Assembly (NCBI GenBank): GCA_016191995.1
Contig: JACPVA010000034.1
Location: forward strand, 1-64,000
Source: Burkholderiales bacterium
GTDB taxonomy: Bacteria > Pseudomonadota > Gammaproteobacteria > Burkholderiales > Burkholderiaceae_C
Direction of reading: 5' to 3'
Length of the DNA: 64,000 bases
Each line of letters starts with the position of its first letter. The first letter of the stretch is position 1. The notes beneath the pieces were generated by a model. That model saw nothing but the letters and a program-made list of their open reading frames with translations. It searched no databases and was not told the DNA's origin. The position numbers were made by a program, and so were the translations under genes. This document shows positions 43,245 through 60,506 of this stretch, piece after piece.

Positions 43245-43260
43245 TGCGCTTCGGCCGCAA

Positions 43261-45811: not shown

Positions 45812-45827
45812 TGGCACGGTGATTGCT
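45812..45827 (+). promoter_or_regulatory. Sigma-54 (-24/-12) promoter of the PEP-CTERM gene
   Basis: TGGCACG (45812-45818), four bases, then TTGCT (45823-45827) is a full match to the RpoN consensus with correct spacing. Transcription would begin near 45838, about 80 bp upstream of the ATG at 45917. About 75-90 bp upstream lies GTTTACTTTACAC (about 45724-45736), an imperfect palindrome that could be an activator site. The PrsR gene in this window encodes a fitting activator. The remainder of 45509-45916 shows no gene. Confidence 0.85.
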
Positions 45828-45916: not shown

Positions 45917-46879
45917 ATGAAACTTAAGAAAGCACTGACGGCGCTCGGCGCGGCAGCGATGCTGGCCGGAGCGAGCGGGTCGGCAAGCGCCGCCATTCAG
46001 GTCGAGAACTGGGTGATCGACCTCGGTTCGCTGGGGGGCGAGTTGGCCGGGTTCGGCAAATTCGGTACCAACGGCGAACTGGGCATCGATCAGATGGAGT
46101 TCAGCGCGCTGTACCACGCGATCATCGCGGGGCCGCTTGCGGTCGGGACACTTCAACACATCGACACGGCGGGAGCAGTGACGACTGCCGTCAACGGTAC
46201 CGGCTTCGTGAACTCGACGACTACCGGCAAGTTCCTCAACGGTAATTTCGAGCTCACGTTCGCCTCGACGACGACAAACGTGATCACTGACGTCGACGGC
46301 ATCACCTTCGACAACAAGACGAGGCATCTGGCGTCCGGTACGGGCCCGGACGGGCTGGTGAGCAATGGCTTCCTGAATATTTACGCCGACGTATGTGGCG
46401 CGATGCTTGGCAACTCGGACGCCAGTCTTTGTGCCAACACCTCTAGTGCTTCAGGTGGAACGGGAATGCAGGACGGGCTGTTGATTGCCACGTTCGAAGT
46501 GCTTGCGGCGTCGGGAGATTCCGGCAGCTTCAATGTCGATGCGCTGGATGGGCAGGACGATGCCGAGTTCAAGCTGGTGTTCAACTTGCTTGGCGCGTTG
46601 CAGGACAGCACCGGGACGGCGCTCGCGCTTGGTTCGACGCTGGCGTTCACGAACGGGAATACCGACGCTGACGACGACAACAATGGCGCCATCGATACGC
46701 TCCCGTCCGGCTGGGGCTCTCAAGGGCTTGGTGCCTGCGGGACGACGATTTTCGACAACTGCGGCGAGGAAGAGGGCAGTCTGAATCTGCAGCAGCGGGT
46801 TCCGGAGCCGGGAACTCTCGCCCTTCTCGGGACGGCCTTGGCGGGCTTGGGCTTCGCTCGCCGTCGCGTCGCCAAATAA
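45917..46879 (+). CDS. PEP-CTERM sorting domain-containing secreted protein
   Basis: A 320-residue exported protein. The N-terminal signal peptide is MKLKKALTALGAAAMLAGAS and so on to ASA. The C terminus has the sorting signal VPEPGTLALLGTALAGLGFARRR: the PEP motif, a membrane helix and an arginine cluster, recognised by exosortase A for processing and surface or matrix delivery. The mature part is Gly/Ala/Thr/Asp-rich and beta-like, with four to five cysteines. The composition is less GC-rich than its neighbours. A GGAGG ribosome site precedes the ATG. The exosortase itself is not in the window. Confidence 0.9.
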   Translation: MKLKKALTALGAAAMLAGASGSASAAIQVENWVIDLGSLGGELAGFGKFGTNGELGIDQMEFSALYHAIIAGPLAVGTLQHIDTAGAVTTAVNGTGFVNSTTTGKFLNGNFELTFASTTTNVITDVDGITFDNKTRHLASGTGPDGLVSNGFLNIYADVCGAMLGNSDASLCANTSSASGGTGMQDGLLIATFEVLAASGDSGSFNVDALDGQDDAEFKLVFNLLGALQDSTGTALALGSTLAFTNGNTDADDDNNGAIDTLPSGWGSQGLGACGTTIFDNCGEEEGSLNLQQRVPEPGTLALLGTALAGLGFARRRVAK

Positions 46880-47037: not shown

Positions 47038-48267
47038 TCAGACTGGCGATGAGTCTGCGTGGGCGATGATCACGGTCTCTGTTGGCGAGCGCAATTCGTA
47101 GGTAATCCCGCGCCATGTCATGCGCCGCGTACGAGCCGATTGAAGCGTGTTGATCAGCGTCATCGCCGAAGCCAACGGTGCGGTGAGAACGTAATGCCAG
47201 CGCAAGTGTCGCACCTGCGGCCGCAGATGCTCGGGAATCAGATCGACGATCGCGCCAAATAGCCACAGCGCGTTGGCCCACTGCATCGGGACGAGCAACA
47301 GCCCGAGCGCGCCGGCAAGTGCCGAGGTACTGTCGGAAGAGGCCCAGACGAGCAGGTTGACGGCGCCATAGGCCACCAGCAGATTGGCGCTGGCATGCCC
47401 GATCGCGGTGCTCCACCACAGCGGCGGCAGATAGACGCGCGAGATCAAGGACTGGCGGTTCGTGAACTCGAGCGTCGCGGGCAACGAGGACTCCTCGTAG
47501 GACACCGCGATGCAGCTTGGCACGAATTGCAGCTTCAACCCCAGTCGCTTCACGGCCACGGTCAGTGTCAGATCGTCCGAGACCGCCCTATCCCAGATCG
47601 CTGCAATATCGGCCCGGTCGTAGACCTCGCGACGTATCGCCATGGCGCCGCCCCAAGCATGCGTCGTCTTCTCGTCGACCAGGAACGGCAGCGCGCCGGC
47701 ATTCCACGTGCTGCGAAGCATCGATCCGAGCGAGGGCTCGGGGGGGTGGTACCAGCGGTAGCCGGTTGTCGCCCCTATCCGGGCGTCGGCGAGCGGTCCG
47801 ACCAGCCGCCGCACGAAGCCCGAGTCGGGCCGGCAGTCGGAATCGACGAAGACAAGGACCCGGGAACGCCGTGACGCCTGCGCAATCGCGGCGAGCTGGT
47901 TCGTGAGCTTCTGCGCCCGGCCGTGGCCAAGCCCGGCGACGATCAGGCGCGCCCGACGCGGGGCTAGGCCGTCCTCGGCCAGCAGCCTCGCGATCGCGTC
48001 GTAGGCTGGATCATCCGCCGTCGCGACTACGAACAGGAGTTCGAGGTCCGGGTAATCCTGGTGCAGCAAGGAGCCGACGTTGTCGACGAAGCCCGGATCG
48101 AGGCCCTTGCAGGGCAGGATCACCGATGCCGGGGGGCAATATTGGATGTCGGTCGGTGTACGCAACATCGCCGGCAGACGGCGTCTCAGGCGCGCTGTAA
48201 GCAGCAAGGGAACCGCCCCGAGGACGGCCGCCAGCGCGGCTACGGCGCCGTTGAGGAGCAAGCTCAT
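47038..48267 (-). CDS. Family 2/21 glycosyltransferase (ceramide glucosyltransferase/HpnI-like)
   Basis: A 409-residue membrane glycosyltransferase. An N-terminal helix precedes the GT-A domain with PPASVILPCKGLDPGF, the metal-binding FVDSDCRPDSGF, GATTGYRWYHP, SDDLTL and the acceptor motif QSLISRVYLPP, a form of the Q-x-x-R-W motif of ceramide-type enzymes. Three or four C-terminal helices follow. It likely adds a sugar to a lipid in the inner membrane; the acceptor is unknown. Its ATG overlaps the methyltransferase stop by one base (TGATG), so the two form an operon. Confidence 0.83.
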   Translation of the reverse strand: MSLLLNGAVAALAAVLGAVPLLLTARLRRRLPAMLRTPTDIQYCPPASVILPCKGLDPGFVDNVGSLLHQDYPDLELLFVVATADDPAYDAIARLLAEDGLAPRRARLIVAGLGHGRAQKLTNQLAAIAQASRRSRVLVFVDSDCRPDSGFVRRLVGPLADARIGATTGYRWYHPPEPSLGSMLRSTWNAGALPFLVDEKTTHAWGGAMAIRREVYDRADIAAIWDRAVSDDLTLTVAVKRLGLKLQFVPSCIAVSYEESSLPATLEFTNRQSLISRVYLPPLWWSTAIGHASANLLVAYGAVNLLVWASSDSTSALAGALGLLLVPMQWANALWLFGAIVDLIPEHLRPQVRHLRWHYVLTAPLASAMTLINTLQSARTRRMTWRGITYELRSPTETVIIAHADSSPV

Positions 48268-49280
48268 CACCGGCTCGGGCGACCCGCGGGTGCCCGCATC
48301 ACCATCATCATGTGGTCGCGCCTCGTCGAAGGCAGGAAGTAGCCGAAGAAGAGGTGGAAGAGCAGGCTGGGATGTCGCAAGAACAGCCCCAGTCGCGGTG
48401 GTTCGTAGCCGACGTCCAGATCGTTTCCCGCGTACATCATCAGCGACTCGAACAGGCGTCGGGCCGTGCCCGGTTGCCACGAGTCCATGTACCAGCGAAG
48501 GTATGTCGCGACGTGGTCCAAGCCTTGCTCTTTCGACAGATCGAGCAAAGCTCGCTCGGACAGGATGTGCAGGTGATACGGCACGTGGATCGCGTGCACG
48601 AACGTCTCCGAGTCCCCCAGCACAATGCCGTCGGCGTTCGGTGTTTCGATGCACAGCCGACCGCCTGGCCTAAGCAGGCCCGCCATTCGCGCGAGAAAGG
48701 TTCGCGGGTCGTCGGCATGCTCGATTACGTCGAGGCTGACAATCCAGTCATAGGACTGCTCAAGTGCCTCCTGTGAGCTGAACGCCTCGACGTACGGATC
48801 GTACCCCGTGCAGCGACCATATCCGTTCTCGCGCAGGAAATCGATGAAGAGACCTCGGTTGCACCCGTAGTCGAGGATCTCGTCGTCCCGCGAGAGGCCC
48901 GCACGCTCCAATCGCCGGAGTACGACTTGGTACCAGCTGCGTGTAAAGTAGTCGAGTCGCTGGTTGCGGATCGGGTAGTCGGCGTAATAGCTCTGCAGGT
49001 CGTCGACCTTCTCGCAGTGTAGCGAGCCGCAGTTTGCACAGCGCGCGACCTCGAAGTAGCGATCGCGATAACGCCTCACATTGCAGCGAACATGCCTCGA
49101 CTCCGCCGCAATCGAAACAAAGCGACAGACTGGACACGACAGTGTCGTGGAGGTCGACCGCGATACATGGTCCGGTATCGACCCAGCGGCAGATACAGCT
49201 CTGAACTGGCGCGCCGCGAGGCTGGCGACGCATGCGTCGACTCGATTGCCTTCAGTCTTCAGTTGCACACTATCCATCAT
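48267..49280 (-). CDS. Class I SAM-dependent methyltransferase with N-terminal zinc-ribbon-like segment
   Basis: A 337-residue protein. Residues 40-90 hold two Cys pairs (CPVCRF and CANCGS) typical of the zinc-binding domain found in sugar-modifying C-methyltransferase relatives. The SAM-binding motif I is ILDYGCNRGLFIDFL (about 139-153) and the post-I acidic motif is in SLDVIEHADDPRTFL. The C-terminal ~80 residues (HPSLLFHLFFGYFLP) are hydrophobic and may touch the membrane. It is coupled to the downstream glycosyltransferase and likely modifies the same lipid or glycan. Confidence 0.82.
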   Translation of the reverse strand: MMDSVQLKTEGNRVDACVASLAARQFRAVSAAGSIPDHVSRSTSTTLSCPVCRFVSIAAESRHVRCNVRRYRDRYFEVARCANCGSLHCEKVDDLQSYYADYPIRNQRLDYFTRSWYQVVLRRLERAGLSRDDEILDYGCNRGLFIDFLRENGYGRCTGYDPYVEAFSSQEALEQSYDWIVSLDVIEHADDPRTFLARMAGLLRPGGRLCIETPNADGIVLGDSETFVHAIHVPYHLHILSERALLDLSKEQGLDHVATYLRWYMDSWQPGTARRLFESLMMYAGNDLDVGYEPPRLGLFLRHPSLLFHLFFGYFLPSTRRDHMMMVMRAPAGRPSR

Positions 49281-49328
49281 CTTCGTTCCCGGTGATTGCC
49301 GATGCGTCGCGGATCAAGAGTCAACTGA

Positions 49329-49344
49329 AGCAATAGGGTGTCCA
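49329..49344 (-). promoter_or_regulatory. Possible sigma-54 promoter of the methyltransferase/glycosyltransferase pair
   Basis: On the minus strand TGGACAC, four bases, TTGCT reads with correct GG-to-GC spacing. The -12 element is perfect and the -24 keeps the essential GG but not the CAC. Transcription would begin near 49317, 37 bp before the ATG at 49280. Confidence 0.4.
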
Positions 49345-49470
49345 CGGACCACTGGAGGCAGCCCGGCCCGACTTCGCCGGCAACGATAGACTCATCAGCT
49401 CGTCGCATCGCCGTCAAGAGGGTGGGTCTTGTCTCGAACATCGAAGCTTCGAGGCGCAGCGACGCACGCA

Positions 49471-51207
49471 TCAGCTGACGCCATAGCGTCCGGGTGCGAG
49501 GATGCCGCAAGGGTCCAGTGCGGACTTGATGCGCCGGTTCAACGCCAGCAGCGCCGGCGCGTCATCGAACAGCCGCGGCCACGCCAGCAGCCCGGCGCGG
49601 TATTGCGCGTAGCCGGCGGCGCGCATGTCGCCGACTAGCGCGTCGTACAGTGCAGCGGCCCGGCGCGCCTCGTCCGCCTCGTCCTTGTCGTACAGGATGT
49701 TCATCAGGCAGGTTACCGCGCGCGGGTTGAGCACCAGCACCGCGACCCAGTAGTCCAGACCGAATTCCTCGAAACGCCGCCGCGCCTGCGCCATGAACGG
49801 CAGCATCGCTGCACTGGTAAACGGTAGCACGGGCGCGAACCAGATCACGCCGCAGCCGTCGCGTCCCGGATCGATGGCGGTGTCCGGCCGCCGGCGCCGG
49901 TGGCGGTAGTAAGCGTGCTTGACGAAATAGTCGGTGGGCACGCCTTGCAGCAGGCGGTGCACGTGCGGCGCCGAGTCGAGCACCTGCAGCGACGAGCCGG
50001 CGAGCTTCTCGACCAACGCGCGCAGCCACGGCTTGCGCCAGGCCTGGCCCAGCACGCGTTCGAGCACGGCGAGCATGCTGTCGGAGACGAATAGCAGTCG
50101 GCCGTAGCGGCCGATCGCCCGCTTCAGGATCCGGCGCTGGAGGCGGACCTGAGCGCGGGTACCGTACAGCCCGCCGGCACAGGTCATCGGTGCCACGCCG
50201 TACCGTTGCCGAAGCTCGGCGATCTCGCCGGCCGACAGTGGTGCGCCGTCCGGGCGCTGCTGTTCGATTCGCTGCATCACCACCGTGAGCGAGACGAAGT
50301 CGTTGATCATGTGCAGCTTGGTCGTCACCACGCCCTGCAGTGCGAGTCGGCGGAATGCGTCGATGACCTGGGGCAAGTGCCGCTCGTCGTGAAGCTCGAA
50401 CACATACGACGCGTGCGCTTCGGGCTCAGGCATCAGCCACACCCCGGCCTGGGTCACGACGCCGAAGTTCGACTGCGTGAAGAGGCCCTCGAGGTAGGGG
50501 CCGACTCCCCACTTGTGCAGGTGCCAGGTCTTGGGGCCCTCGTCCGTGCCCCCGAGGCGCACGATCTCGCCGGTGGGCAGCACGACCTCCAAACCACAGA
50601 GGTTGCCGAAGTGGTCTCCGTAGGGCGTCTGCCCAAGTCCGCGGTCGAGCGCGTTGCCGACCACGCTGCCCTGCGAGGTGCCGTCGATGCAGTCGGCCCA
50701 GAGCCGATGGCCGTTCGCCTTCAGGTGGGCATTCAGCTGGGCGTAGGTCACGCCGGGTTCGAGCACGGCGTAGGCAAGCTCGTCGTTCACCTCGAGGATG
50801 CGGTTCATGCGCTGCAGCAGCATGACCACGACGCCGTCCTCGGGCGCTAGCGTGGTGCCGTAGCCCCAGTTGCGCCCGCCGCTGAAGGGCCAGACCTTCA
50901 GGCCGTGCGCGGCGGCGATCTTCAGCACGGCCGACACGTCGTCACGGTTGCCGGGGAACACGACCGCGGCGCAGCGACTCTGCCACGGAATGGTGCAGCG
51001 CGAGGAGCGGTCGAGATCTTCCGGCCGGATGCACACATGCGCGTCGCCCAGCGCCGCACGGAGCTGATCGAGCGCGGCGACAGGCAACGCGGTTGATGGG
51101 GTCACGGATTTCACGCCCAGCTGGTTCACGCCCTGCCCGCGATCGTCCTCAGGCTGCTCGACGGGCGCGGGCCGACCGTCATGCGGCAGTCGTTCCGGGC
51201 TTCCCAT
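49471..51207 (-). CDS. FAD-binding oxidoreductase, vanillyl-alcohol oxidase/p-cresol methylhydroxylase family
   Basis: A flavoprotein of about 578 residues. The PP-type FAD domain shows VVFPGNRDDVSAVLKIAAAH, PFSGGRNWGYG, YAVLEPGVTYAQLNAHL, and DGTSQGSVVGNALDRGLGQT. KWGVGPYLEGLFTQSNFGVV closely follows the p-cresol methylhydroxylase/vanillyl-alcohol oxidase pattern, and LDPCGILAPGRYG ends the protein. Family members oxidise phenolic or related alcohols and amines; the substrate here is unknown. Starts at 51207 (ATG) and 51129 (GTG) are both possible, and neither has a strong ribosome site. The first overlaps the reductase gene by 29 bp. Confidence 0.82.
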   Translation of the reverse strand: MGSPERLPHDGRPAPVEQPEDDRGQGVNQLGVKSVTPSTALPVAALDQLRAALGDAHVCIRPEDLDRSSRCTIPWQSRCAAVVFPGNRDDVSAVLKIAAAHGLKVWPFSGGRNWGYGTTLAPEDGVVVMLLQRMNRILEVNDELAYAVLEPGVTYAQLNAHLKANGHRLWADCIDGTSQGSVVGNALDRGLGQTPYGDHFGNLCGLEVVLPTGEIVRLGGTDEGPKTWHLHKWGVGPYLEGLFTQSNFGVVTQAGVWLMPEPEAHASYVFELHDERHLPQVIDAFRRLALQGVVTTKLHMINDFVSLTVVMQRIEQQRPDGAPLSAGEIAELRQRYGVAPMTCAGGLYGTRAQVRLQRRILKRAIGRYGRLLFVSDSMLAVLERVLGQAWRKPWLRALVEKLAGSSLQVLDSAPHVHRLLQGVPTDYFVKHAYYRHRRRRPDTAIDPGRDGCGVIWFAPVLPFTSAAMLPFMAQARRRFEEFGLDYWVAVLVLNPRAVTCLMNILYDKDEADEARRAAALYDALVGDMRAAGYAQYRAGLLAWPRLFDDAPALLALNRRIKSALDPCGILAPGRYGVS

Positions 51208-52318
51208 ATCGATGTGCGAGAAAGTGGTCGAGCACGGCGGGAAGGTACGCGCTCGGCGCGGGACGCGACATCCCGCGGCCCTGCAGCCAAGTCCGGAATC
51301 CGGCGTCGTCGAAGGCCTGCGTGTCGGCCAGGTAATCCAGATAGATCGGCAAGGTGGCCAGCGGCTTGCGCAGCTCGCGCGGCGCCACCCTGGCCAGCAG
51401 CCTTGCCAGGGCGCCGTAGCAGCGACGCGGCAGCACATGGTCGCCAGGGACGGACAGCCCATGATGCGAATACGCCCGGCGTACCTGCTCCTTCAGGTCG
51501 TGGATCGGCACCGCTTCCCTGGCTCCGCTGCACAGGTGCAGGATGCGCCCGACCGTGGCCGGGTCGTTGCTGGCGGCAGCGATGGCTTCGGCGACGATGT
51601 CGCAGCCGATGACGTCCAGGCTGGCGGCGCCGAACGCCGGATAGAGGCCATGCGTGCGCCGCCCTGACAGGAACTCGCACAGGAAGTAGAAGACCTGGAA
51701 ACCGATGATCCGCCCGGTGTGTGAATCCCCGACGACCATGCTCGGGCGATGCACGGTCAGTGGCAAGGGGTAGGCAGCCGTCGCCTCGCGCAGGTAGTCT
51801 TCGGCCTCCGCCTTGGCCTGCTCGTAGGTGTTGTGGAAACCACGCGGCTCGGCCAGCCAGCGCTCCGGGATTGGGACCTGCAGTCGGCCGCCTACACCGA
51901 CCGTGCTGACGAAGTCGAGCTTGACCAGGCGGGGACAGTCGCGCGCCAGCGCCACGACCTGGCGAGCCGACCCCACCGCCGATCGGCGAGCCTCGTCGAG
52001 CGGCAGGTTCATGCGCACCAGGCCCGCGGCGTGGACGATATGGGTGCAGGTTGCGGCCAGCGAGCGATAGGCGGTCTCGTCGAGCCCGAGTCGCGGCAAG
52101 GTTGTGTCCCCCGCCACTGCTTCGATGCGCGACCGCAAGGCCGTGCTGCCCCGGGGAACGTCCCAAAAAGCGTACAGCGTCTCGAGCCGGCTGGCGAGCT
52201 CCTCGGAATCGCGCGCCCGGATCAGCAGTCTCAGGCGTGCCGACGGGTCGGCCAGCAGCCTGGGCACGAGGCTGCTTCCGACCACGCCGGTGGCGCCCGT
52301 CACGAAGTAGGTCTTCAT
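51179..52318 (-). CDS. Extended SDR, thioester-reductase/fatty acyl-CoA reductase-like
   Basis: A 379-residue NAD(P)-dependent enzyme. The Rossmann motif is TGATGVVGSSLVPRLL, followed by the RARDSEELASRL region typical of thioester reductase domains, GDTTLPRLGLDE, IVHAAGLVRMN, and the Ser-Tyr-Lys set in VSTVGVGG and YEQAKAEAE. Relatives reduce acyl-CoA or acyl-carrier thioesters to aldehyde or alcohol. Its ATG overlaps the acyl-CoA ligase stop (ATGA), so ligase and reductase are made together, fitting activation then reduction of a fatty or other carboxylic acid. Confidence 0.82.
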   Translation of the reverse strand: MKTYFVTGATGVVGSSLVPRLLADPSARLRLLIRARDSEELASRLETLYAFWDVPRGSTALRSRIEAVAGDTTLPRLGLDETAYRSLAATCTHIVHAAGLVRMNLPLDEARRSAVGSARQVVALARDCPRLVKLDFVSTVGVGGRLQVPIPERWLAEPRGFHNTYEQAKAEAEDYLREATAAYPLPLTVHRPSMVVGDSHTGRIIGFQVFYFLCEFLSGRRTHGLYPAFGAASLDVIGCDIVAEAIAAASNDPATVGRILHLCSGAREAVPIHDLKEQVRRAYSHHGLSVPGDHVLPRRCYGALARLLARVAPRELRKPLATLPIYLDYLADTQAFDDAGFRTWLQGRGMSRPAPSAYLPAVLDHFLAHRYGKPGTTAA

Positions 52319-54240
52319 GTGCTGAGCCACAGGACGGTTCCGTTGTGGCGCTCGACGACGATGGGTTCGGTCGGGTGCGCGGCGATCGCTTCGCTGAGCT
52401 CGTCGATCTCGGAGGCAAATGACTTCTCGACGTTCGCGCGTCGCACCTTCAGGTTGGGCGTGACCAGTCCCGCGTCGACGGTGAAGGGGCGCGTGGTCAG
52501 CACCGCGCCGGCGGGCCGGTGGTGATCGGGCAGGTCCGCGAGCGCCGACGCCAGGTCGGCCCGAAGCGTGCCGGCCCACGGCCGGGCATCGTCGGCGGCC
52601 GCTGCGCGCGCAGCTACCCGGCTGCGCAGTGCGGGCTCCGAAATCGCGATCAGCGCGACCAGGAACGGCCGGCTGGCGCCGAAGACCACGGCGTGCTCCA
52701 CGTACGGGATCTGGCGCAAGCGGCTCTCGATCGTCGACGGCGCGATCCGCCGGCCCGTCGAGGTCTTGAAAATCTCCGACTTGCGCCCGAGCAGCGTCAC
52801 GAAGCCGTCCGGATCGATGCTCGCATGGTCGCCGCTGGCCAGGAATCCATCAGCGCCCGTGCGGCGCCGGGCCTCCGAGTCCCCAAGGTAGCCGGCAAAT
52901 ACCCCTGCCCCCCGCACCAGCAGCTCGCCGTCCGGCGCCAGCCTGACCTCCACGCCATCCAGCGGCCGGCCGACCGTACCGAAGCGGAATGCGCCGGGCG
53001 TGTTGGCCGCCACCGGCACGATGCACTCGCTCATGCCATACGCTTCCAGCACGAGAAAGCCGAGGCCATGAAACCGTTCGAGCAGCCATACCGGCATCGG
53101 CGCCGAGCCGCTGATCAGGAAGCGGATGTCCCGGCCCAGCACGCTGCGCACGCGTGCGAGCACGAGCCGGTCGGCGATCGCGGCGGACAGCCGATGCACC
53201 GCACCCAGCGGTGCGCCGCCACGGGTGGCCCGGGCGCGGCGGTCACCGGCGCGTATCGCCCAGTGGGCCAGCTTGCGCTGCCAGGCTGGCTTGGCGTCGA
53301 TCGCCTCCAGGATGCCGGCGTAAAGCTTCTCGAAGAAGCGCGGCACGCCGATGAAGAGGTGCGGCGAGATCGTCGGCACGTGCGCCATCACGGCCCGTGG
53401 GTCGGCGACGTAGAAGGTCTGCGCGCCACGGCCCAGGGCACAGAAGTTGATCATGCGCTGGAACAGGTTGGACAGCGGCAGCCAGCACGCCAGGCGGCTT
53501 CCGGGGCCGATATCCGGAAAGGCCAGCAGGATGGCCGCCACCGCGCCGCAGACCTGTCGGTGCGTGTAGGCAATCCCTTTGGGCTCACCGGTGGTTCCGG
53601 ACGTGAAGACAACAAGCGCCTCGTCGTCGGCTCGGGATTGATCCCAGCCCTGCCCGGGCTCGGCCTGGCCTAGCCGCTCCAGATCGTCGAACGACGTGCT
53701 GCCTTGCCCCGGTTGCCCGTCCAGGGTGACGGTGAAGCGCAAGCTGTCCCGACGGTCCGGCCCCAGCTTGGCAATTGCGGCTTCATCCTGCCCCACGACT
53801 CCGACCAGCCCGGACTGAAGGGCCATCTGGGCGAGTCGATGGTCGGTGTCGTGCGGGTCGAGCCCGACGACGACCCCTCCGGCAGCCATGGCCGCCAACT
53901 GCACGATGTCCCATTGCGGCGAACTGCTGGCGATAAGGCCCACCCGTTCGCCGTGGCGCAGGCCCAGTGCCCGCAGCCCACGTGCTGCAGTGGCGACCGC
54001 CTCGAGGAACTGCCGCCATCGGATCACTTGCCAGCGCGGGTCGTCCTGCAGCCACCACAGCGCAGGCGCCTGGGGATCGATCTCGGCGCGGGCCCTTAGC
54101 ATGGCAGGTACCGTGACGACATCCTGCCCCAGCGTTGCGCGGAGATCCGGCCACGCTGCGACAGGTCCGGGCGCAGACGCCTGTCCGCGCGTCGCCCGGG
54201 CCGGGGCCAATTCGAGAAAAGCAGGGGGCGCGGGGTTCAC
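52315..54240 (-). CDS. AMP-dependent acyl-CoA synthetase (long-chain fatty acid ligase type)
   Basis: A 641-residue adenylate-forming enzyme. The phosphate loop is VVFTSGTTGEPKG, the adenine motif is VLEAYGMSE, the ATP-ribose motif is ASGDHASIDPDGFV followed by LLGRKSEIFKTSTGRRIAP, and the C-terminal region holds LVTPNLKVRRANVEK with the likely catalytic lysine. The build resembles long-chain acyl-CoA synthetases. It is translationally coupled to the reductase gene downstream. Its own substrate cannot be read from sequence. Confidence 0.87.
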   Translation of the reverse strand: MNPAPPAFLELAPARATRGQASAPGPVAAWPDLRATLGQDVVTVPAMLRARAEIDPQAPALWWLQDDPRWQVIRWRQFLEAVATAARGLRALGLRHGERVGLIASSSPQWDIVQLAAMAAGGVVVGLDPHDTDHRLAQMALQSGLVGVVGQDEAAIAKLGPDRRDSLRFTVTLDGQPGQGSTSFDDLERLGQAEPGQGWDQSRADDEALVVFTSGTTGEPKGIAYTHRQVCGAVAAILLAFPDIGPGSRLACWLPLSNLFQRMINFCALGRGAQTFYVADPRAVMAHVPTISPHLFIGVPRFFEKLYAGILEAIDAKPAWQRKLAHWAIRAGDRRARATRGGAPLGAVHRLSAAIADRLVLARVRSVLGRDIRFLISGSAPMPVWLLERFHGLGFLVLEAYGMSECIVPVAANTPGAFRFGTVGRPLDGVEVRLAPDGELLVRGAGVFAGYLGDSEARRRTGADGFLASGDHASIDPDGFVTLLGRKSEIFKTSTGRRIAPSTIESRLRQIPYVEHAVVFGASRPFLVALIAISEPALRSRVAARAAAADDARPWAGTLRADLASALADLPDHHRPAGAVLTTRPFTVDAGLVTPNLKVRRANVEKSFASEIDELSEAIAAHPTEPIVVERHNGTVLWLST

Positions 54241-54315
54241 GAGATGATCGACTCGGCGAGTCCAGGTACGCGCGCGCGCGGTCGGGGCGTCCGGGCAGCG
54301 ATCGCGGACCTTGCC

Positions 54316-55392
54316 CTAGATCGGCGGATCATAGGCACCGCGCGGACGCGTGATCCGCAACTCCTCGGGCTTCAGGCCCAGCCAGCGGAGATGGGTCGTG
54401 ACGTTGCTCCCGAGGAAGAGCCGGCGACGGATCATCGTGTCCACCAGCGGCGCCATGACACGCCAATAGGCCCGGCTCGCCTTGCCGTCGCGAATCAGCG
54501 CCGAGAACTCGGGCGCATAGGGGTTGTAGCCGAAGTTGCGCAGGTCCGAATACATGAGCAGCCAGTTGATGGGGTAGTTGCTGACCACCGGGCTGGCGTG
54601 CGAGGACTTGTCGACCAGGCCGAGCCGGGACACCTCGCGCATCACCTGGTCCTGGTCGTAGTCCCAAGCGTGGAAGGGGGCGATATAGCGCGGAAACCTT
54701 GTCCCGGCCGGATAACGCGCCGGGTTCCAGAAGCGTGCCAGTTCGGGCTCGCTGAACTGGCCCGACTCGCGCAGGCCCGGCGGCGTCCAGTCGACCTCGC
54801 CGATCAGCCGGCGCGAGAACTCGTACACCATGCGCTCGGGTTCGGGTTGGCCGGGGGAGTAGCCGGCCGCCACCAGCGGGATGCCCTTTTCAAGCGCGAC
54901 CTGGAGCGCGTCGCCCTCGAACAGCGGGGCGTAGACGTACGAGACGGTATAGACCGCGCCGCGGGCCTCCTGTTCGGTCAGCAGGAAGCGGAACAGCTTG
55001 CGGTAGAAAGCCTCGGGCGGGCGATAGACCAGATGGTCGATCTCGAGCTTGGCCACCGTGCGCCGGATGCTGCGCCAGGCGACGTCGGGAATGTTGACAT
55101 CGGTCGTGAAGGCCAGGACGCTCAGGCCGAAGTCCACTCTGAGCCGGTGCAGCAGGTACAGGCTGTCCTTGCCGCCACTGAGGCAAACCAGTGCGTCGTA
55201 CGGCCGCCCCTGGCCCCGCGCTGCGGCCAGCGTGCGCTCCAGGTCGGCTTTCCACGCCTGCCGCTGTGCGTGCTGCCGCTCATTGATGTCGCTGGACGAA
55301 GATGGCGCCCGGCAGAGCCGGCACAGCCCCGACTTGTCGATGTCCGATCCAGGCACGGCGGCTGGAAGCAGGCAGTTCTTGCAGCGCTTCAT
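54316..55392 (-). CDS. PP-loop N-acetyl sugar amidotransferase-like protein (WbpG/PseA family)
   Basis: A 358-residue ATP-pyrophosphatase-type enzyme. The N terminus has a four-cysteine zinc-ribbon-like pattern (CKNCLLP, then GLCRLC). The PP-loop SGGKDS follows in ALVCLSGGKDSLYLLHRL, then FTTDVNIPDVAWRSI. The C-terminal region includes FHAWDYDQDQVMREV. Classic family members turn a sugar acetamido group into an acetamidino group and need HisH/HisF-like partners; none is encoded here. Aminated or thiolated non-sugar products are therefore also possible. It lies 75 bp upstream of the acyl-CoA ligase on the same strand. Confidence 0.78.
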   Translation of the reverse strand: MKRCKNCLLPAAVPGSDIDKSGLCRLCRAPSSSSDINERQHAQRQAWKADLERTLAAARGQGRPYDALVCLSGGKDSLYLLHRLRVDFGLSVLAFTTDVNIPDVAWRSIRRTVAKLEIDHLVYRPPEAFYRKLFRFLLTEQEARGAVYTVSYVYAPLFEGDALQVALEKGIPLVAAGYSPGQPEPERMVYEFSRRLIGEVDWTPPGLRESGQFSEPELARFWNPARYPAGTRFPRYIAPFHAWDYDQDQVMREVSRLGLVDKSSHASPVVSNYPINWLLMYSDLRNFGYNPYAPEFSALIRDGKASRAYWRVMAPLVDTMIRRRLFLGSNVTTHLRWLGLKPEELRITRPRGAYDPPI

Positions 55393-55518
55393 CGTGGCGC
55401 CGATACGTTGGGCCGACTCGGGGTCTCGGCGGGATCGCAGATCCTGCGCGGCACAGAAGCCGCCAACCGGCGCCTTTGGGGCCTGGCGGGCATGAGCGAG
55501 TTCAAGGCAAGCCTGACG

Positions 55519-56787
55519 CTAGAAGTAGACGGCGACGAGCGCCGAGATCGACCGCTTGATGGGAGCGACCGCATATTCGCTGGCGCCGGTGCCGCTCGTG
55601 CTCTGCCACTGCAGCGCCAGGTCCGCGCGATCCATGCGGTAGCGGAGCTCCAGCCACAGGAGCCGACTACGGTCGGTCGCATTCAGGCGCCCCAGCGCGG
55701 TCAGTTCGAGATTCTTCACACCCAAGTCGCGCTGGATCGCGTACGCCATGACGGCATCGCGCGCAGCATTGTCCTGAAGCAAGATGGCTGTCGCGTAATA
55801 GGCGGGCAGCGCGGAGGTGCTGGTGGACCGAAGCGCGAGCCAGCCTTCGCGATCGAGCGCGAAGCCGTTGTACTGCGCCTCGAGCGTCAGCGACAGGCGG
55901 GTAGGCGTGGTGTAGGTCAGGCCGACGGCGCCGCGCTGGCGTGTTCGTGCCTGGCCGTCCAGCCCGAGCGCGCGTGCGAGCAAGTCGGGCTCCCGGCTGA
56001 ACGACCATTCCGCGTGCGCCACGGTGGCGTCGGTGAGGAGAAGGCTGCCACTGGCACCCAGTCTGGCCGACGAGCCCTCTTCCTGGTACAGGCTCAGCTG
56101 GGTGTTGGCCGCGGCGCTCCAGCGCGTGCCCAGCGAGACCAGAGCGCGGTGGCGTGCATTGGTGGCGCCCAGATCGGCACTGAAGCTGGCGCGGCTTGCC
56201 GTACTGGCCAGCTTGGGGGCAAATGCACCCGACAACGAGCCGGTGTCCCAGTTGCGCTGCGCTCGCAGCATGAACACCCCCATCCTGTTCTCGCGCAGCG
56301 TGAAGGGGTCCTGCGTGCTGATGGTACGAAGCGCGCTGTCGCGCAGGAAATCGGACGGGTTGTAGCCGTAGCCCGGGCCCTCGCGCAGGTTGACGCGACC
56401 GATCTCCCACGCGCTGGCGCCGCCGTCATCTTGCCAGCCCAGGTAGGCCTCCCGCAGGCTGAAGACCGGGTTCTCGATGCGGCCGTCGGCCGGCCGCGAC
56501 GCGTCCAGCCGCGCCGAGACGGTCGTGCGCATTCGCGGGCCGAGCGACTGGGTGTGCCGGCCTTCGACGGCAATGCGGCCGATCGATCGCGACCCGAGGC
56601 CAAGGCGATGGTCTGCGTGGCCGATCGAGCCCTCGACGCGCCAACGCTTGCCGCCATCCTGCGCCGCCACCGGTTGGGACTCCTGCACTTGCAGATCCAG
56701 CGCGTCGAGGTCGGATGCCTGGGCCGCCAGGCCAACCCAACTACCTAGTGCGGCGGCTGCGGCCCAGCGAGCGACGGTGCGTTTCAT
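55519..56787 (-). CDS. Predicted outer-membrane beta-barrel protein, unknown function
   Basis: A 422-residue precursor. The signal peptide ends near QAS (about residue 25). The rest is alternating polar/apolar strands with frequent Trp/Tyr/Arg and few long helices, as in outer-membrane barrels, and it ends ISALVAVYF with the C-terminal phenylalanine expected for BAM recognition. No named family was recognised. It starts the middle of a minus-strand run with the LolA-like gene only 3 bp upstream, so it may be the outer-membrane end of the ABC export system. Confidence 0.75.
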   Translation of the reverse strand: MKRTVARWAAAAALGSWVGLAAQASDLDALDLQVQESQPVAAQDGGKRWRVEGSIGHADHRLGLGSRSIGRIAVEGRHTQSLGPRMRTTVSARLDASRPADGRIENPVFSLREAYLGWQDDGGASAWEIGRVNLREGPGYGYNPSDFLRDSALRTISTQDPFTLRENRMGVFMLRAQRNWDTGSLSGAFAPKLASTASRASFSADLGATNARHRALVSLGTRWSAAANTQLSLYQEEGSSARLGASGSLLLTDATVAHAEWSFSREPDLLARALGLDGQARTRQRGAVGLTYTTPTRLSLTLEAQYNGFALDREGWLALRSTSTSALPAYYATAILLQDNAARDAVMAYAIQRDLGVKNLELTALGRLNATDRSRLLWLELRYRMDRADLALQWQSTSGTGASEYAVAPIKRSISALVAVYF

Positions 56788-56790
56788 GTG

Positions 56791-57627
56791 TCAGCGCTCC
56801 GGCTGGAAGCGTGGAAGTTGATCGCGCTGGAACCAGCCGGCGGGGATGTCCATCGCCGTGTACTCGCTCATTCGCATCAGGGTCACCGACCGGGGGTCCA
56901 GCCCGTCGATGATGACCAATTCGGTCGGCCGCTGCGAGCCGAGGTGACGCTCGAAGCGCCGGTAATAGACGGTCTTGAGCAGCCGACCCGAGTCGGCGTG
57001 GAAGAGTCCCTTGATCGGCCAGTTGTCGTCCACGCCGACCCAGAGCAGGATGCTGCCATAAGTGGCACTTCCGATCGCCGGCCGCAGCTCGAGCTTGTAG
57101 GCGCGGCGCGTGCGACGTTCGCCATCGGTCACGTCCTCCTCGCCGAGGATCTCAGCCGCATAGTCGCGCGCCAGGTTGACGGTTACGACATCGCCGTTGG
57201 CGGCCTGCCCGAGCAGCCGTTGCTGCGGTGACAACCGCACGCTGGCCTTGGTATCCGGATCATAGAACCACAGGTCGTTGCCGTTCTTGAGCATCAGCTT
57301 GCCGGCGTCCCGCGCGGGCGCGACGAAGCGCACCAAGCTGGCGAACTGGCCGCCCTCATCGAGCGCGCGGGAGTAGGTCGCCAACGCGCTGCTGGCGACC
57401 TGCCGCCCCTGCTGAAACTCCACGAGCGTCACGTCGACGCGGAACGGCCGCCCCGGATTGCGGACGTCGTCGCTGGCCGCAAGGATGCGCTGAGGGTCGG
57501 GGGCTGCCAGGGCGACAGTCGCAGCCGCGAGGATGAGGACGGCGACCAGAACGCCGACCGTGCCAGCGAAAGGAGGGGCGGGATTGCGACGCATTTCGGG
57601 CGGGCGCTCGGGAAGGGGATCAGGCAT
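56791..57627 (-). CDS. LolA-like outer-membrane lipoprotein-sorting protein
   Basis: A 278-residue exported protein with an N-terminal membrane/signal helix (VGVLVAVLILAAATVALAA) and a LolA-like beta domain. Recognisable blocks are GKLMLKNGNDLWFYDPDTKA, RLSPQQRLLGQAANGDV and a hydrophobic C-terminal half with WFQRDQLPRF. Members of this family sit next to LolCDE/MacB-like ABC genes and are thought to carry lipids or lipoproteins across the periplasm. The start at 57627 overlaps the permease stop by eight bases; an ATG at 57594 is an alternative. Confidence 0.82.
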   Translation of the reverse strand: MPDPLPERPPEMRRNPAPPFAGTVGVLVAVLILAAATVALAAPDPQRILAASDDVRNPGRPFRVDVTLVEFQQGRQVASSALATYSRALDEGGQFASLVRFVAPARDAGKLMLKNGNDLWFYDPDTKASVRLSPQQRLLGQAANGDVVTVNLARDYAAEILGEEDVTDGERRTRRAYKLELRPAIGSATYGSILLWVGVDDNWPIKGLFHADSGRLLKTVYYRRFERHLGSQRPTELVIIDGLDPRSVTLMRMSEYTAMDIPAGWFQRDQLPRFQPER

Positions 57628-59020
57628 GACGCAGCGCGTCGACGATCACGAGGCGCGATGCACGGCGTGCTGGCCACCAAGCCGAAAGTGCGGCCACCGA
57701 AGCCAGCCCGACCACTGTCAACGTGATGGTCCCGATTTCACCCCAGACGACGAGCTGCAGGGGAAGCCGAACGCCGCTGCCCGGCGGCAGCCAGGTCAGC
57801 CCCAGGCTGTTGAAGGTCCCCGAGGCGACTAGCGCGAACAGGGCGCCGAACGCGGCGCCGGCAACGCCTAGCATGAGGCCTTCGAGCACGAAGAGGCGTT
57901 GAATGCCTCGTCGACGCACGCCGATCGCGCGGACCGTGCCGATCTCGACCGTGCGCTCCATGACCGCGGTGCTCATCGTGTTGCCTACCGTGAACAGCAC
58001 GATGGCAGCGATCAGTGCAAAGATGAAGCTGAAGATGGTGCCGAACATCTCGACGGTCTGAACGAAGAAGGGATTCAGCTCACGGAAGTTCCGCACCACG
58101 AGACGCTGGTCGGCGCCGCGGGCCGCCAGCAATTCCTCGAGCCGCTGGCGTGCGGGCTCGATCTGCTCGCTACGGTTCAATTGCACCTGCAGCGAGGTGA
58201 CCTTCGGATCGCCGCGCCCGTAGACGAGCCGCTGAGCGAGCGGCAACTGGGTCAGCACGTAGACCTCGTCGACTTCCTTGAAACCCTGGCGCTCGACTTC
58301 GATGACGTCCATCGCGACGACGTTCGGCGCGCCGCCGCTTCCGCTGGCCAGCAGGTCCACGCGGGTGCTGCCAGGGCTAGAACCTGGCGTACCGCCGGCG
58401 GCATCGGAAGCCAGGGCGGCGATATCCGTCGGCAGGTCGACCCCGCCTGTCTCAGCACCCTCCTCGACGGGGTGCGGGCAGTCGTCGACACCCAACGGCT
58501 GGCACAGTCGCAACACGCGCGCGACCCCGGCGCCGACGAGCGCGGCATTGTCCGCGGCGCCTTCCAGCGCGAAGGGGGCCGGCGGTAGCGGGAGCCTGAA
58601 CTGGTTCCAGGTGCGCATGCGGTTGACTGCCTCGCCGATCCTGCCGACGACCTGCACCGTTCGGGAGACATCGGCGAGGTGATTGCTGGCGATGCCGCCG
58701 AACTGGAGTACGGGGGAGACGATGACGACCATGTTGCGTAGCACGGGATCGCTGGCGACGGCCGTCATGATCTCCTGGTAGCCCTCGATGCCGTAGGCGA
58801 TCGGGTTCCCACTTCCGTATAGGAAGTAGTCGCGATGTTGAATCTGCAGATGCCCGCCGTCGCGCACGTAAGCCGTGTGCATGCTGTACTCGATGTTCGC
58901 CCGGTAACCGCCGAACAGAAGGATGGATGCGGTGCCGATCGCCAAGGCGAGCAATGTGGCCAGCGACCGCCTGCGGTTGCGCAGCAGGTTGCGCGCCGCC
59001 AGCGACAGGCCCGCGATCAC
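57620..59020 (-). CDS. ABC transporter permease, FtsX/LolC-E type
   Basis: A 466-residue inner-membrane protein with an N-terminal helix (SLATLLALAIGTASILLFGG), a ~230-residue periplasmic domain and three C-terminal helices carrying the FtsX signature (TVGNTMSTAVMERTVEIGTVRAIG within about 345-370). This is the MacB/LolCE fold, which extracts lipids or lipoproteins from the membrane instead of moving solutes through a channel. It overlaps the ATPase stop by four bases. Confidence 0.85.
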   Translation of the reverse strand: MIAGLSLAARNLLRNRRRSLATLLALAIGTASILLFGGYRANIEYSMHTAYVRDGGHLQIQHRDYFLYGSGNPIAYGIEGYQEIMTAVASDPVLRNMVVIVSPVLQFGGIASNHLADVSRTVQVVGRIGEAVNRMRTWNQFRLPLPPAPFALEGAADNAALVGAGVARVLRLCQPLGVDDCPHPVEEGAETGGVDLPTDIAALASDAAGGTPGSSPGSTRVDLLASGSGGAPNVVAMDVIEVERQGFKEVDEVYVLTQLPLAQRLVYGRGDPKVTSLQVQLNRSEQIEPARQRLEELLAARGADQRLVVRNFRELNPFFVQTVEMFGTIFSFIFALIAAIVLFTVGNTMSTAVMERTVEIGTVRAIGVRRRGIQRLFVLEGLMLGVAGAAFGALFALVASGTFNSLGLTWLPPGSGVRLPLQLVVWGEIGTITLTVVGLASVAALSAWWPARRASRLVIVDALRHA

Positions 59021-59823
59021 GTGCCCACCTCCGCACGAGGATGGTCGGCAGGAGACCCAGGATGTTCGGACTTGCGCCGGATGCCGCGGATCACCCCGTC
59101 CTTGAGGAAGATCGCATCGTCGGCCGATCCGATGACCGCCCGGTCGTGCGACGAAAACAGGAAGGAGATCTGGTAGCGCTGCTGCATGCGCCTCATCAAG
59201 TGCAGGATTGCCTTGCCGGTGTGGCTGTCGAGATTGGCCGTGGGCTCATCGGCGATGACGAGCCGAGGCTTCAACGCGAGCGCGCGGGCGATCGCGACGC
59301 GCTGACGCTGGCCACCGGAGAGCTGCCCGGGCCGGTTGCGTGCCCGGTCGGCCAGCCCAACCGCCTGCAACAGCTTGTGCACTCGTCGTTCCCGCTTGGC
59401 CGCCGGTACGCCTGCCAGGAGCATCGGATACTCGACATTCTCGTAGGCAGAAAGCACCGGCAGCAGGTTGTAGTTCTGGAAGATGAAGCCGACGTGCCGG
59501 GCACGAAAGTCGGACAGCTCGTCGTCGCTCATGGGGCCGATGTCGTGGCCGGCGACGACCACCGTGCCGCGGTCGGGGTGATCGATCCCGCCGATAAGGT
59601 TGAGCAACGTTGTCTTGCCGCTACCCGAGGGCCCGAGCAGCACGGTGAACCGCCCAGGGCGAACGAGCAAGTCGATGCCCTTGAGGACGGGCACCTCGAC
59701 TTCGTCCATCCGATACGTCTTGTCGACGGCTTCGAGCAAGGCAACCGGCTCTGGGCCGGGCGCCATGGGCTGCGTCGGCGCGCCGCTGTCGGTCGCCTCA
59801 GGCACGCGCGGCATCCTCGACAT
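59017..59823 (-). CDS. ABC transporter ATP-binding protein, LolD/MacB type
   Basis: A 268-residue ATPase with Walker A GPSGSGKTT, Q-loop FIFQNYNLLPVLSAYENV, signature LSGGQRQR, Walker B LVIADEPTANLD and the switch histidine in LFSSHDRAVI. The LPVLSAYENVEYP segment is typical of LolD-like proteins. The start codon lies at the left edge of a ~1.3 kb non-coding and remnant region, so this is the first clear gene of the minus-strand cluster. Confidence 0.88.
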   Translation of the reverse strand: MSRMPRVPEATDSGAPTQPMAPGPEPVALLEAVDKTYRMDEVEVPVLKGIDLLVRPGRFTVLLGPSGSGKTTLLNLIGGIDHPDRGTVVVAGHDIGPMSDDELSDFRARHVGFIFQNYNLLPVLSAYENVEYPMLLAGVPAAKRERRVHKLLQAVGLADRARNRPGQLSGGQRQRVAIARALALKPRLVIADEPTANLDSHTGKAILHLMRRMQQRYQISFLFSSHDRAVIGSADDAIFLKDGVIRGIRRKSEHPGSPADHPRAEVGT

Positions 59824-60480
59824 TGAGCCGCAACGCGGCAGGCTCGCGCCGGCTCGACCGATGCACGTGGGGCGGGCCCATGCCTGCGCGCCCCGGGGGC
59901 ACGCTACGCAAAGGCGCCCGTTCTCCCGACGACGGCTTCACTCTGGCGCGGACGCGGCGTTCGGATTCCATCGCCTCAGGGTCGATCGGGAACTCGCGCT
60001 GCTCGGTCGCTTGGCCGCCGAGGACGGCCGCCTTGAGTCTGGGCTGCGACATGAACAGGAGCTTCGCGATTGAGAGGTACGGTACGGCCGACTCGGCCCC
60101 CGGCCGGCCTGGGGACAGCCGCGCCCTGATCGTCGCGTTGCGCGCGCGCCGAGGGGTTGATGCGCGGCGCACCGTCCCCAAGGCCGCACCTCCAAGTGCG
60201 ACCGCGCGATCTCGATTTCCGCCAGCGGACCTCTGAAGTATTGCACTCGTCGATATCCTCGGCGCTGAATGCCGAGCGTGCCATGTCGGCGAGAAACCTG
60301 GTCTGCCGAGCATCGGCGGCTACGCCACGTTGATTGTCACTTACAGATCGCCGTCGACAAGAAGCTGCTCCCTGCCGCACCAATGCTCCGAACTTGAGAA
60401 GTCCGTGCTAGAACTTTGCGCAAGTTGTTGATCCGAAGAGTGTTTCTGCTCTAGACAAGGAAAGCTTGGGTAGAATTCCA
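59798..60480. other. Intergenic region upstream of the LolD-like gene; one doubtful small ORF
   Basis: No confident gene is present. A minus-strand frame from an ATG at 60052 would give about 84 residues (MSQPRLKAAVLGGQATEQRE and so on), overlapping the LolD-like start, without recognisable similarity. The part from about 60310 to 60510 is clearly more AT-rich than the rest of the window. A weak promoter-like TTGATC/TAGACA pair (18 bp apart) occurs around 60430-60460. Confidence 0.3.
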
Positions 60481-60483
60481 GAT

Positions 60484-60501
60484 ACTGTAGGTTCATACAG
60501 T
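60484..60501. promoter_or_regulatory. LexA-like dyad (CTGT-N8-ACAG)
   Basis: ACTGTA, six bases, TACAGT is a perfect dyad and contains CTGT-N8-ACAG, the format of the LexA box. It lies just upstream of the IS4-family transposase remnant, where some IS elements carry SOS control. Confidence 0.4.
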
Positions 60502-60506
60502 CTTCT

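What the first reader, a model, noticed from the sequence alone, without database searches (positions are those of the whole stretch)
49471..59823. Undescribed acyl-product synthesis and export cassette
On one strand lie a VAO/PCMH-type flavoprotein, a thioester-reductase-like SDR coupled to an acyl-CoA ligase, a PP-loop amidotransferase homologue, an outer-membrane barrel, a LolA-like carrier and a LolCD-like ABC pair. Ligase plus reductase would give an aldehyde or alcohol, the flavoprotein an oxidation, the PP-loop enzyme nitrogen or sulfur transfer, and the Lol-like part transport to the outer membrane. I know of no named system with this set.
Basis: inference. Interest (0 to 1): 0.8.

Follow-up and report, generated by a model that had tools for sequence, protein, structure and literature searches.

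The report
Lipid-tailoring operon beside PEP-CTERM genes
A run of bacterial genes that looks like a pathway for modifying and exporting a fatty amino-acid lipid is really there, its three-enzyme core recurs in distant bacteria near genes for a class of cell-surface proteins, and what it makes is still unknown.

Summary
The eight genes are on one strand at 49471-59823, overlapping or closely spaced; a methyltransferase and a glycosyltransferase follow (to 47038). They sit inside an XrtA/PEP-CTERM exopolysaccharide locus. The set recurs in part: PP-loop enzyme, acyl-CoA ligase and thioester-reductase-like SDR occur together in 24 of 26 related loci (proteobacteria, Planctomycetes, others), and the first two form one 980-aa frame in two Planctomycetes. 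The flavoprotein (10 of 26) and Lol-like genes (11 of 26; controls 3 of 20) are optional. [quoted passage not shown] a PEP-CTERM gene lies in 14 of 14 loci of 16 kb or more (controls 3 of 20). Best reading: the core tailors an N-acyl amino acid. Ligase plus SDR reduce its carboxylate to an aldehyde, the PP-loop enzyme turns its amide into an amidine, and closure to a lipid imidazole is plausible; the flavoprotein oxidises a phenol side chain; the Lol-like part exports. Linkage is shown, chemistry inferred. Nine paper searches, with capped listings, showed no description of this module.

The parts
59017..59823 (-). LolD-like ABC ATPase (268 aa)
   Evidence: ABC_tran 1.7e-35; LolD model 220 bits, below its cut-off of 307.75
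57620..59020 (-). LolC/FtsX-like permease (466 aa)
   Evidence: FtsX 7.8e-13; lolCE 74 bits, below its cut-off of 362; overlaps LolD by 4 bp
56791..57627 (-). LolA-like periplasmic lipid carrier (278 aa)
   Evidence: PF17131 1.1e-32
55519..56787 (-). probable outer-membrane barrel (422 aa)
   Evidence: no family match; signal-like start and C-terminal Phe; weak DUF1302-type resemblance, 11% probability; inference
54316..55392 (-). PP-loop (NASAT/WbuX-like) enzyme (358 aa), core gene
   Evidence: TIGR03573 2e-23, below cut-off; SGGKDS and the four Cys invariant in 27 of 27; 58-74% identity in 26 loci
52315..54240 (-). acyl-CoA ligase, FadD11/CAR-adenylation-like (641 aa), core gene
   Evidence: AMP-binding 2.2e-59; in 26 of 26 loci; one frame with the PP-loop enzyme in L053 and L054 (families tested for L053 only)
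51179..52318 (-). thioester-reductase-like SDR (379 aa), core gene
   Evidence: NAD_binding_4 2.3e-48; Thioester-redct 140.9 bits, cut-off 213; start corrected; in 24 of 26 loci
49471..51129 (-). VAO/PCMH-type flavoprotein (about 550 aa; the longer frame to 51462 is probably not translated; exact start not settled)
   Evidence: Tyr and Tyr-Arg positions kept in 11 of 11
48267..49280 (-). SAM methyltransferase, possible operon continuation
   Evidence: Methyltransf_23 2e-21; relatives beside the core in L038 and L039
47038..48267 (-). GT21/HpnI-like glycosyltransferase, possible operon continuation
   Evidence: HpnI 1e-34, below cut-off; Glyco_transf_21 3.2e-09; start at 48267; no relative in the 26 loci
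45917..46879 (+). PEP-CTERM surface protein, PepA-like, neighbour
   Evidence: PEP-CTERM 5.7e-06 (frame from 45893); floc_PepA 1.2e-12, below cut-off
45812..45826 (+). sigma-54 -24/-12 promoter-like site upstream of the PEP-CTERM gene
   Evidence: exact TGGCAC-N5-TTGC; sites with at most one mismatch at 15 of 20 such genes, the window's included

Best explanation
[quoted passage not shown] In the window's genome the NAS candidates lie elsewhere; in relatives the NAS-type gene is often next door. Proposed steps: (1) the ligase activates the amino-acid carboxylate of N-acyl-tyrosine (or a similar N-acyl amino acid) as a thioester and the SDR reduces it to the aldehyde; (2) the PP-loop enzyme activates the fatty-amide C=O with ATP and replaces its oxygen with nitrogen, giving an amidine, as its relatives are thought to do on N-acetyl sugars; (3) an amidine beside an aldehyde can close to a 2-alkyl-4-(4-hydroxybenzyl)imidazole (for a palmitoyl chain C25H40N2O, [M+H]+ 385.321, my arithmetic); (4) the VAO/PCMH-type flavoprotein, where present, oxidises the carbon para to the phenol; (5) the Lol-like ABC pair, LolA-like carrier and barrel move the lipid to the outer membrane, where it acts with the PEP-CTERM protein and exopolysaccharide. 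Shown: genes, order, recurrence, NAS-type and PEP-CTERM linkage, kept motifs. Inferred: all substrates, every reaction, ring closure, export cargo. The confidence given is for 'tailors a NAS product and exports it'; the imidazole itself I put near 0.18.
For: PP-loop enzyme and ligase in 26 of 26 loci, with the SDR in 24; single 980-aa PP-loop-ligase frame in two Planctomycetes. NAS-type genes in 13 of 26 loci, in seven of them on the same strand within 325 bp upstream of the PP-loop gene; 0 of 20 control stretches matched the two local NAS profiles. Of the 26 genomes, 16 were searched whole and 16 of 16 encode a NAS-type gene; the other 10 have one in the locus. In 150 genomes of the order, 5 of 5 genomes with a strong PP-loop match have one against 38 of the other 145 (p 0.0016). 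The PP-loop enzyme keeps both sequence signatures of the NASAT family in 27 of 27 (definition in PMC10607449 passages). The flavoprotein keeps the phenol-pocket Tyr and Tyr-Arg positions in 11 of 11 (roles recalled). Ligase and SDR co-diverge (rho 0.79).
Against: No NAS lies in the window; the genome's two FeeM-type genes above cut-off are on other contigs and it has no TIGR03694 match. 13 of 26 loci show no confident NAS-type gene, seven of them 16 kb or longer (L037, L044, L047, L048, L049, L053, L054; the last two only weak matches). NAS are already reported near PEP-CTERM genes, so the link could be indirect. That TIGR03694 proteins make N-acyl amino acids rests on a weak FeeM match of one of them and a passage of PMC11072679, not on a test. 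The PP-loop enzyme scores 83 bits against a WbuX cut-off of 203, and no HisH/HisF-type ammonia donor was found near the core. The flavoprotein is in only 10 of 26 loci and its distances do not track the core significantly.
Confidence: 0.45

Rival explanations
1. Sugar reading: the PP-loop enzyme makes acetamidino sugars for the exopolysaccharide, as WbuX/WbpG do for O-antigen, and the ligase and reductase modify an acyl group of the polysaccharide.
For: WbuX-family resemblance; the window is an XrtA exopolysaccharide locus; rhamnose-type sugar genes lie upstream in L046 and, by clustering, in L041 and L042.
Against: Score well below the WbuX cut-off; no HisH/HisF partner found nearby; one frame with the acyl ligase in two genomes; NAS-type gene within 325 bp upstream in seven loci.
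Confidence: 0.2
2. Plain fatty aldehyde or alcohol reading: ligase and SDR reduce a fatty acid, giving an alcohol or wax-like outer-membrane lipid; the PP-loop enzyme makes a fatty amide or amine-type headgroup; NAS is only a neighbour.
For: Ligase resembles FadD11 and CAR adenylation domains, SDR resembles thioester reductases and the Male sterility family; Lol-like export genes; ligase and SDR co-diverge most tightly.
Against: Does not explain why each of the 26 genomes carries a NAS-type gene nor the phenol-pocket flavoprotein.
Confidence: 0.2
3. Sulfur reading: the PP-loop enzyme inserts sulfur rather than nitrogen, giving a thioamide that closes with the aldehyde to a thiazole.
For: PMC10607449 lists sulfur transferases among the nearest folds of the solved NASAT (passages); no ammonia donor found nearby.
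Against: No sulfur carrier or cysteine desulfurase among the neighbours that were annotated; most neighbours were not annotated.
Confidence: 0.07
4. The eight genes are a chance cluster of unrelated functions.
For: The exact eight-gene set, with this barrel, was not seen in the 26 loci.
Against: Overlapping or closely spaced genes; core recurs in 24 of 26 loci across distant taxa.
Confidence: 0.03

Closest known systems
[quoted passage not shown] not held; cited in PMC7293339 and PMC11072679)
   Same: NAS-type genes near PEP-CTERM genes
   Different: The PP-loop, ligase and SDR core is not mentioned in the passages I saw; the 2011 paper itself was not read
Stieleriacine / thalassotalic acid / kyonggic acid / tyrazolone pathways (PMC12479983, section 6)
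   Same: NAS product tailored further; one host genus (Stieleria) shared
   Different: Those use a ThiF-type protein and a nitroreductase; here PP-loop enzyme, ligase, SDR and VAO-type flavoprotein
NASAT family: WbuX, WbpG, Legionella NASAT 8WEX (PMC10607449, passages)
   Same: PP-loop and tetracysteine signature; presumed amide-to-amidine chemistry
   Different: Below the family cut-off, no HisH/HisF neighbour found, fused or adjacent to an acyl ligase
VAO / p-cresol methylhydroxylase flavoproteins
   Same: FAD domain, phenol-pocket Tyr and Tyr-Arg positions
   Different: A Trp stands where I recall the covalent flavin anchor of relatives; substrate would be a tyrosine-derived lipid (inference)
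LolCDE-LolA lipoprotein sorting
   Same: LolD-like ATPase, FtsX permease, LolA-like carrier
   Different: One permease gene; ATPase and permease below the Lol cut-offs; cargo probably a small lipid (inference)

Membership tests
NASAT/WbuX N-acetyl sugar amidotransferase | PP-loop SGGXDS | tested here: met
   SGGKDS in 27 of 27; definition from PMC10607449 passages
NASAT/WbuX N-acetyl sugar amidotransferase | Tetracysteine CXXCXn[GN]XCXXC | tested here: met
   C4, C7, C24, C27 invariant in 27 of 27; Gly at position 22 of the window protein
NASAT/WbuX N-acetyl sugar amidotransferase | Score above the curated TIGR03573 cut-off | tested here: not met
   83.4 bits against 203.2; so not filed as WbuX
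NASAT/WbuX N-acetyl sugar amidotransferase | N-acetyl sugar substrate | not testable with these tools
   needs an enzyme assay
NASAT/WbuX N-acetyl sugar amidotransferase | HisH/HisF-type ammonia partner nearby (recalled for WbuX/WbpG) | tested here: not met
   HisH and HisA of the own genome as tblastn queries: no hit at E 0.01 in 30 held stretches (three are duplicates) and the window, positive control found; divergent relatives could be missed
VAO/PCMH 4-phenol-oxidising flavoproteins | FAD_binding_4 domain and PCMH/VAO as nearest solved relatives | tested here: met
VAO/PCMH 4-phenol-oxidising flavoproteins | Phenolate-binding Tyr and Tyr-Arg (roles and positions recalled) | tested here: met
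   11 of 11 sequences
VAO/PCMH 4-phenol-oxidising flavoproteins | Covalent flavin anchor | tested here: inconclusive
   Trp at the recalled position, also in 9fge
Thioester reductase (TIGR01746) | Score above the curated cut-off | tested here: not met
   140.9 against 213.35 bits; called thioester-reductase-like only
N-acyl amino acid biosynthetic cluster | NAS gene in the cluster | tested here: not met
   none in the window; two FeeM genes above cut-off elsewhere in the genome; NAS-type gene present in 13 of 26 related loci
N-acyl amino acid biosynthetic cluster | N-acyl amino acid-derived product | not testable with these tools
   needs lipid analysis
Stieleriacine/tyrazolone-type pathway | ThiF-type protein and nitroreductase | not tested
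   not searched for; none among the neighbours annotated, which are a minority
LolCDE lipoprotein sorting | Scores above LolCE and LolD cut-offs | tested here: not met
   74.1 against 362; 220 against 308
XrtA/PEP-CTERM exopolysaccharide locus (surroundings) | PrsT, PrsR, PrsK, EpsB_2, pepcterm_export and chain-length genes above cut-off | tested here: met

The most novel reading that the evidence does not exclude
The core makes a so far unknown class of lipid heterocycle, 2-alkyl-4-(hydroxybenzyl)imidazoles, by amidine formation on an N-acyl amino aldehyde, and exports it to the outer membrane as the partner of a PEP-CTERM floc-type protein, possibly even as the lipid to which an exosortase attaches such proteins (that last step perhaps 0.04; it could not be universal, since 52 of 145 other genomes of the order have an exosortase without a strong PP-loop match).
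Probability: 0.18. Interest if true: 0.88.

Novelty: new variant of a known kind. Interest (0 to 1): 0.6.

Why it matters
Why N-acyl amino acid synthases sit beside PEP-CTERM/exosortase genes is, as far as I know, an open question. A conserved three-enzyme module in such neighbourhoods, found from Nitrosomonas and methanotrophs to Planctomycetes, suggests that the N-acyl amino acid is often not the end product and names the enzymes to test. If the amidine step is real, it would extend an enzyme family known from sugars to lipids and give a new lipid class tied to flocs and biofilms of nitrifying, methanotrophic and sludge bacteria.

Tried and rejected
Ether-lipid reading (flavoprotein as alkyl-DHAP synthase beside a fatty acyl reductase): dropped because the best alkyl-DHAP synthase match is 40 bits against 281 for the VAO/PCMH group. 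Stieleriacine pathway: dropped because PMC12479983 assigns it to other enzymes. A sigma-54 site ahead of the operon itself: none with at most one mismatch near 59823; the exact site found lies before the PEP-CTERM gene. Sigma-70 promoter scan of 46800-61200: none found, and terminator-like sites fewer (3) than in shuffles (mean 5.3), so uninformative. DUF1302 relation of the barrel: 11% probability, not claimed. IS4-type remnant at about 60480-60860: recalled resemblance, no Pfam match, left as a guess. Literature listings that showed no describing paper.
Full report
The observation. The window lies in contig C13 of a 4.55 Mb draft genome (199 contigs, 94% complete). On the minus strand at 49471-59823 are a LolD-like ATPase, a LolC/FtsX-like permease, a LolA-like carrier, a probable barrel, a WbuX-like PP-loop protein, an acyl-CoA ligase, a thioester-reductase-like SDR and a VAO/PCMH-type flavoprotein. 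Neighbouring genes overlap or are close. The barrel has no family match. After a 190-bp gap a methyltransferase and a GT21/HpnI-like glycosyltransferase follow on the same strand.

Surroundings. Left of the run are PrsT, PrsR, PrsK and EpsB_2 of the XrtA/PEP-CTERM system, right of it the XrtA export and chain-length proteins, all six above their curated cut-offs. Third-position GC is 0.75-0.88 in the run with the methyltransferase and 0.76 in the PEP-CTERM frame, 0.90-0.97 in those six EPS genes, and 0.84-0.95 in four frames between them at 42300-45508 (the glycosyltransferase was not measured). This suggests later arrival of the run but is not a test. A PEP-CTERM protein (PepA-like, below the PepA cut-off) at 45917-46879 has an exact sigma-54 -24/-12 site at 45812-45826; with one mismatch allowed the window holds 4 sites where about 5 are expected by chance, so only the exactness and place carry weight. 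PMC9850573 (passages) reports that pepA of Aquincola is RpoN-dependent with a TGGCAC -24 element and is involved in floc formation.

Recurrence. In 150 genomes of the window's order, 27 had a PP-loop match at E 0.001, of which 5 (the window's genome included) were strong and the other 22 weak or partial. An alignment of those five was used for one scan of 84,980 species genomes, which returned 26 loci: Nitrosomonas, Nitrosospira, Methylomonas, Thiorhodococcus, Accumulibacter, Stieleria, Rhodopirellula, Desulfohalobiaceae, Kiritimatiellae and other MAGs, names as in the record titles. By tblastn with the window's proteins: PP-loop 26 of 26, ligase 26, SDR 24 (L035 ends inside the ligase; none found in L055), flavoprotein 10, LolD-like 8, LolC-like 6, LolA-like 4 (L058 has one more by Pfam), any Lol-like 11, methyltransferase 2, barrel 0, glycosyltransferase 0. 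In 20 control stretches of 20 kb the numbers, in the same order, were 0, 1, 0, 0, 3, 0, 0, 3, 0, 0, 0. Order and strand vary: in L052 and L057 the SDR precedes the ligase, and in L056 the ligase is on the other strand. In L053 and L054 the PP-loop enzyme and ligase are one open frame of 980 aa (families tested for L053). Pairwise divergence is correlated for ligase/SDR (rho 0.79), PP-loop/SDR (0.55) and PP-loop/ligase (0.43), not significantly for the flavoprotein with any of them; pairs are not independent.

N-acyl amino acid synthases. Two recurring neighbours are FeeM (PF21926) and the PEP-CTERM/exosortase-associated acyltransferase TIGR03694. I count both as NAS-type; [quoted passage not shown] Representatives were tested against the libraries (L034, L045, L055 for FeeM; L052 for both); the rest were assigned by clustering and local profiles. 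FeeM-type genes are in 8 of 26 loci (L033, L034, L035, L038, L045, L055, L057, L058), TIGR03694-type in 8 (L038, L040, L042, L045, L046, L052, L056, L057), either in 13; L053 and L054 gave only weak matches (no NCBIfam match for L054) and were not counted. In seven (L033, L034, L035, L040, L045, L055, L056) the gene lies on the same strand within 325 bp upstream of the PP-loop gene, in two more (L052, L057) divergently within 142 bp. Of 14 loci of at least 16 kb, 7 hold one, against 0 of 20 controls searched with the local profiles (p 0.0006). Sixteen of the 26 genomes were searched whole: TIGR03694 above cut-off in 13 of 16, FeeM in 9 of 16, either in 16 of 16; the other ten carry one in the locus. 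In Methylomonas LW13 the nearest such gene is about 51 kb from the core. Among the 150 genomes of the order, 21 have TIGR03694 above cut-off, 36 FeeM, 43 either; the 5 strong PP-loop genomes are all among the 43 (p 0.0016), 4 of 5 have TIGR03694 (17 of 145 others, p 0.0013), 4 of 5 FeeM (32 of 145, p 0.012), and 5 of 5 an exosortase (52 of 145, p 0.007). The window's own genome has two FeeM genes above cut-off on other contigs and no TIGR03694 match. Relatedness of the genomes means that these p values overstate the surprise.

PEP-CTERM link. By one fixed rule a PEP-CTERM protein gene is present in 18 of 26 loci, and in 14 of 14 loci of 16 kb or more, against 3 of 20 control stretches (p 5e-7). 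In L049 the rule also caught one further frame that looks like chance. Of 20 linked PEP-CTERM genes examined (18 loci, the window and L029), 15 have a sigma-54-like site with at most one mismatch in the 300 bp upstream or first 90 bp; such a site turned up in up to 6% of shuffles of each of those stretches; the five without are L042 (its upstream is not held), L047, L053, L054 and L058. Of 16 linked proteins aligned, 15 match the PepA model at E 0.001 or better, several probably through the terminal motif alone. That NAS genes lie near PEP-CTERM genes is reported (Craig et al. 2011, not held; cited in PMC7293339 and PMC11072679, passages); the core module beside them is what I did not find described.

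How it may work. PMC10607449 (passages) describes the NASAT family as ligating ammonia to a sugar N-acetyl group with loss of water, with a PP-loop and a tetracysteine motif that binds zinc in the solved member. Both motifs are invariant in 27 of 27 core proteins, the window's included. An N-acyl amino acid has the same kind of secondary amide. The ligase and SDR resemble the two ends of carboxylic acid reductases and would turn its carboxylate into an aldehyde. An amidine beside an aldehyde can close to an imidazole; this is chemical reasoning, not a result. The flavoprotein keeps the Tyr of the GYG motif and the Tyr-Arg pair in 11 of 11 sequences; their role in phenol binding is recalled. 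Together with the tie of NAS enzymes to N-acyl tyrosines (PMC12479983, abstract and section 6) this points to a tyrosine-type head group where the flavoprotein occurs. The varied exporters (Lol-like; HlyD and FtsX types in L051, L053 and, by clustering, L054; MMPL with LolA-like in L058) all suit a lipid crossing the envelope.

Doubts. The NAS association may be second-hand through PEP-CTERM loci; seven loci of 16 kb or more show no confident NAS-type gene; the PP-loop protein is far below the WbuX cut-off; no ammonia donor was found in 30 held stretches (three of them duplicates) or the window; only a minority of neighbours was annotated; the control stretches come from six genomes; no structure could be predicted; no product is known. 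I therefore give 0.45 to the general reading and 0.18 to the lipid imidazole.

Literature. Search listings only: 20 of 39 papers listed; 25 of 2,254; none found; 15 of 40. Read in part: PMC7293339 (passages, section 8), PMC11072679 (passages), PMC12479983 (abstract, passages, section 6), PMC8762209 (passages, all in its reference list), PMC10607449 (passages), PMC9850573 (passages). The library lacks most subscription journals, so absence there is weak evidence of novelty.

Noticed in passing
window 45812-46879 (+): PepA-like PEP-CTERM gene with an exact sigma-54 -24/-12 element; 15 of 20 PEP-CTERM genes linked to the core, this one included, have such an element with at most one mismatch.
   Followed up: partly
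window 59824-61095: About 1.2 kb in which I found no convincing gene, between the run and the XrtA export gene, with a broken transposase-like stretch near 60480-60860 (resemblance recalled, no Pfam match).
   Followed up: partly
window 45893-59823: Lower third-position GC than the named EPS genes on both sides, suggesting horizontal arrival.
   Followed up: partly
L053 9926-12868, L054 9926-12868: PP-loop enzyme and acyl ligase in one 980-aa frame in two Planctomycetes.
   Followed up: partly
L045 8078-8926: A DUF2887/DUF4351 gene sits between ligase and SDR, as if inserted into the module.
   Followed up: no
L042 13718-14188: A second, partial SDR copy lies between the ligase and the full SDR.
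   Followed up: no
L046: A MAG titled Klebsiella pneumoniae carries this type of locus with a TIGR03694-type gene; the label is probably wrong (inference).
   Followed up: no
L034 8161-8958: The FeeM protein resembles part of PRK14852 (989 aa profile), which may be a NAS joined to further enzymes (guess).
   Followed up: no
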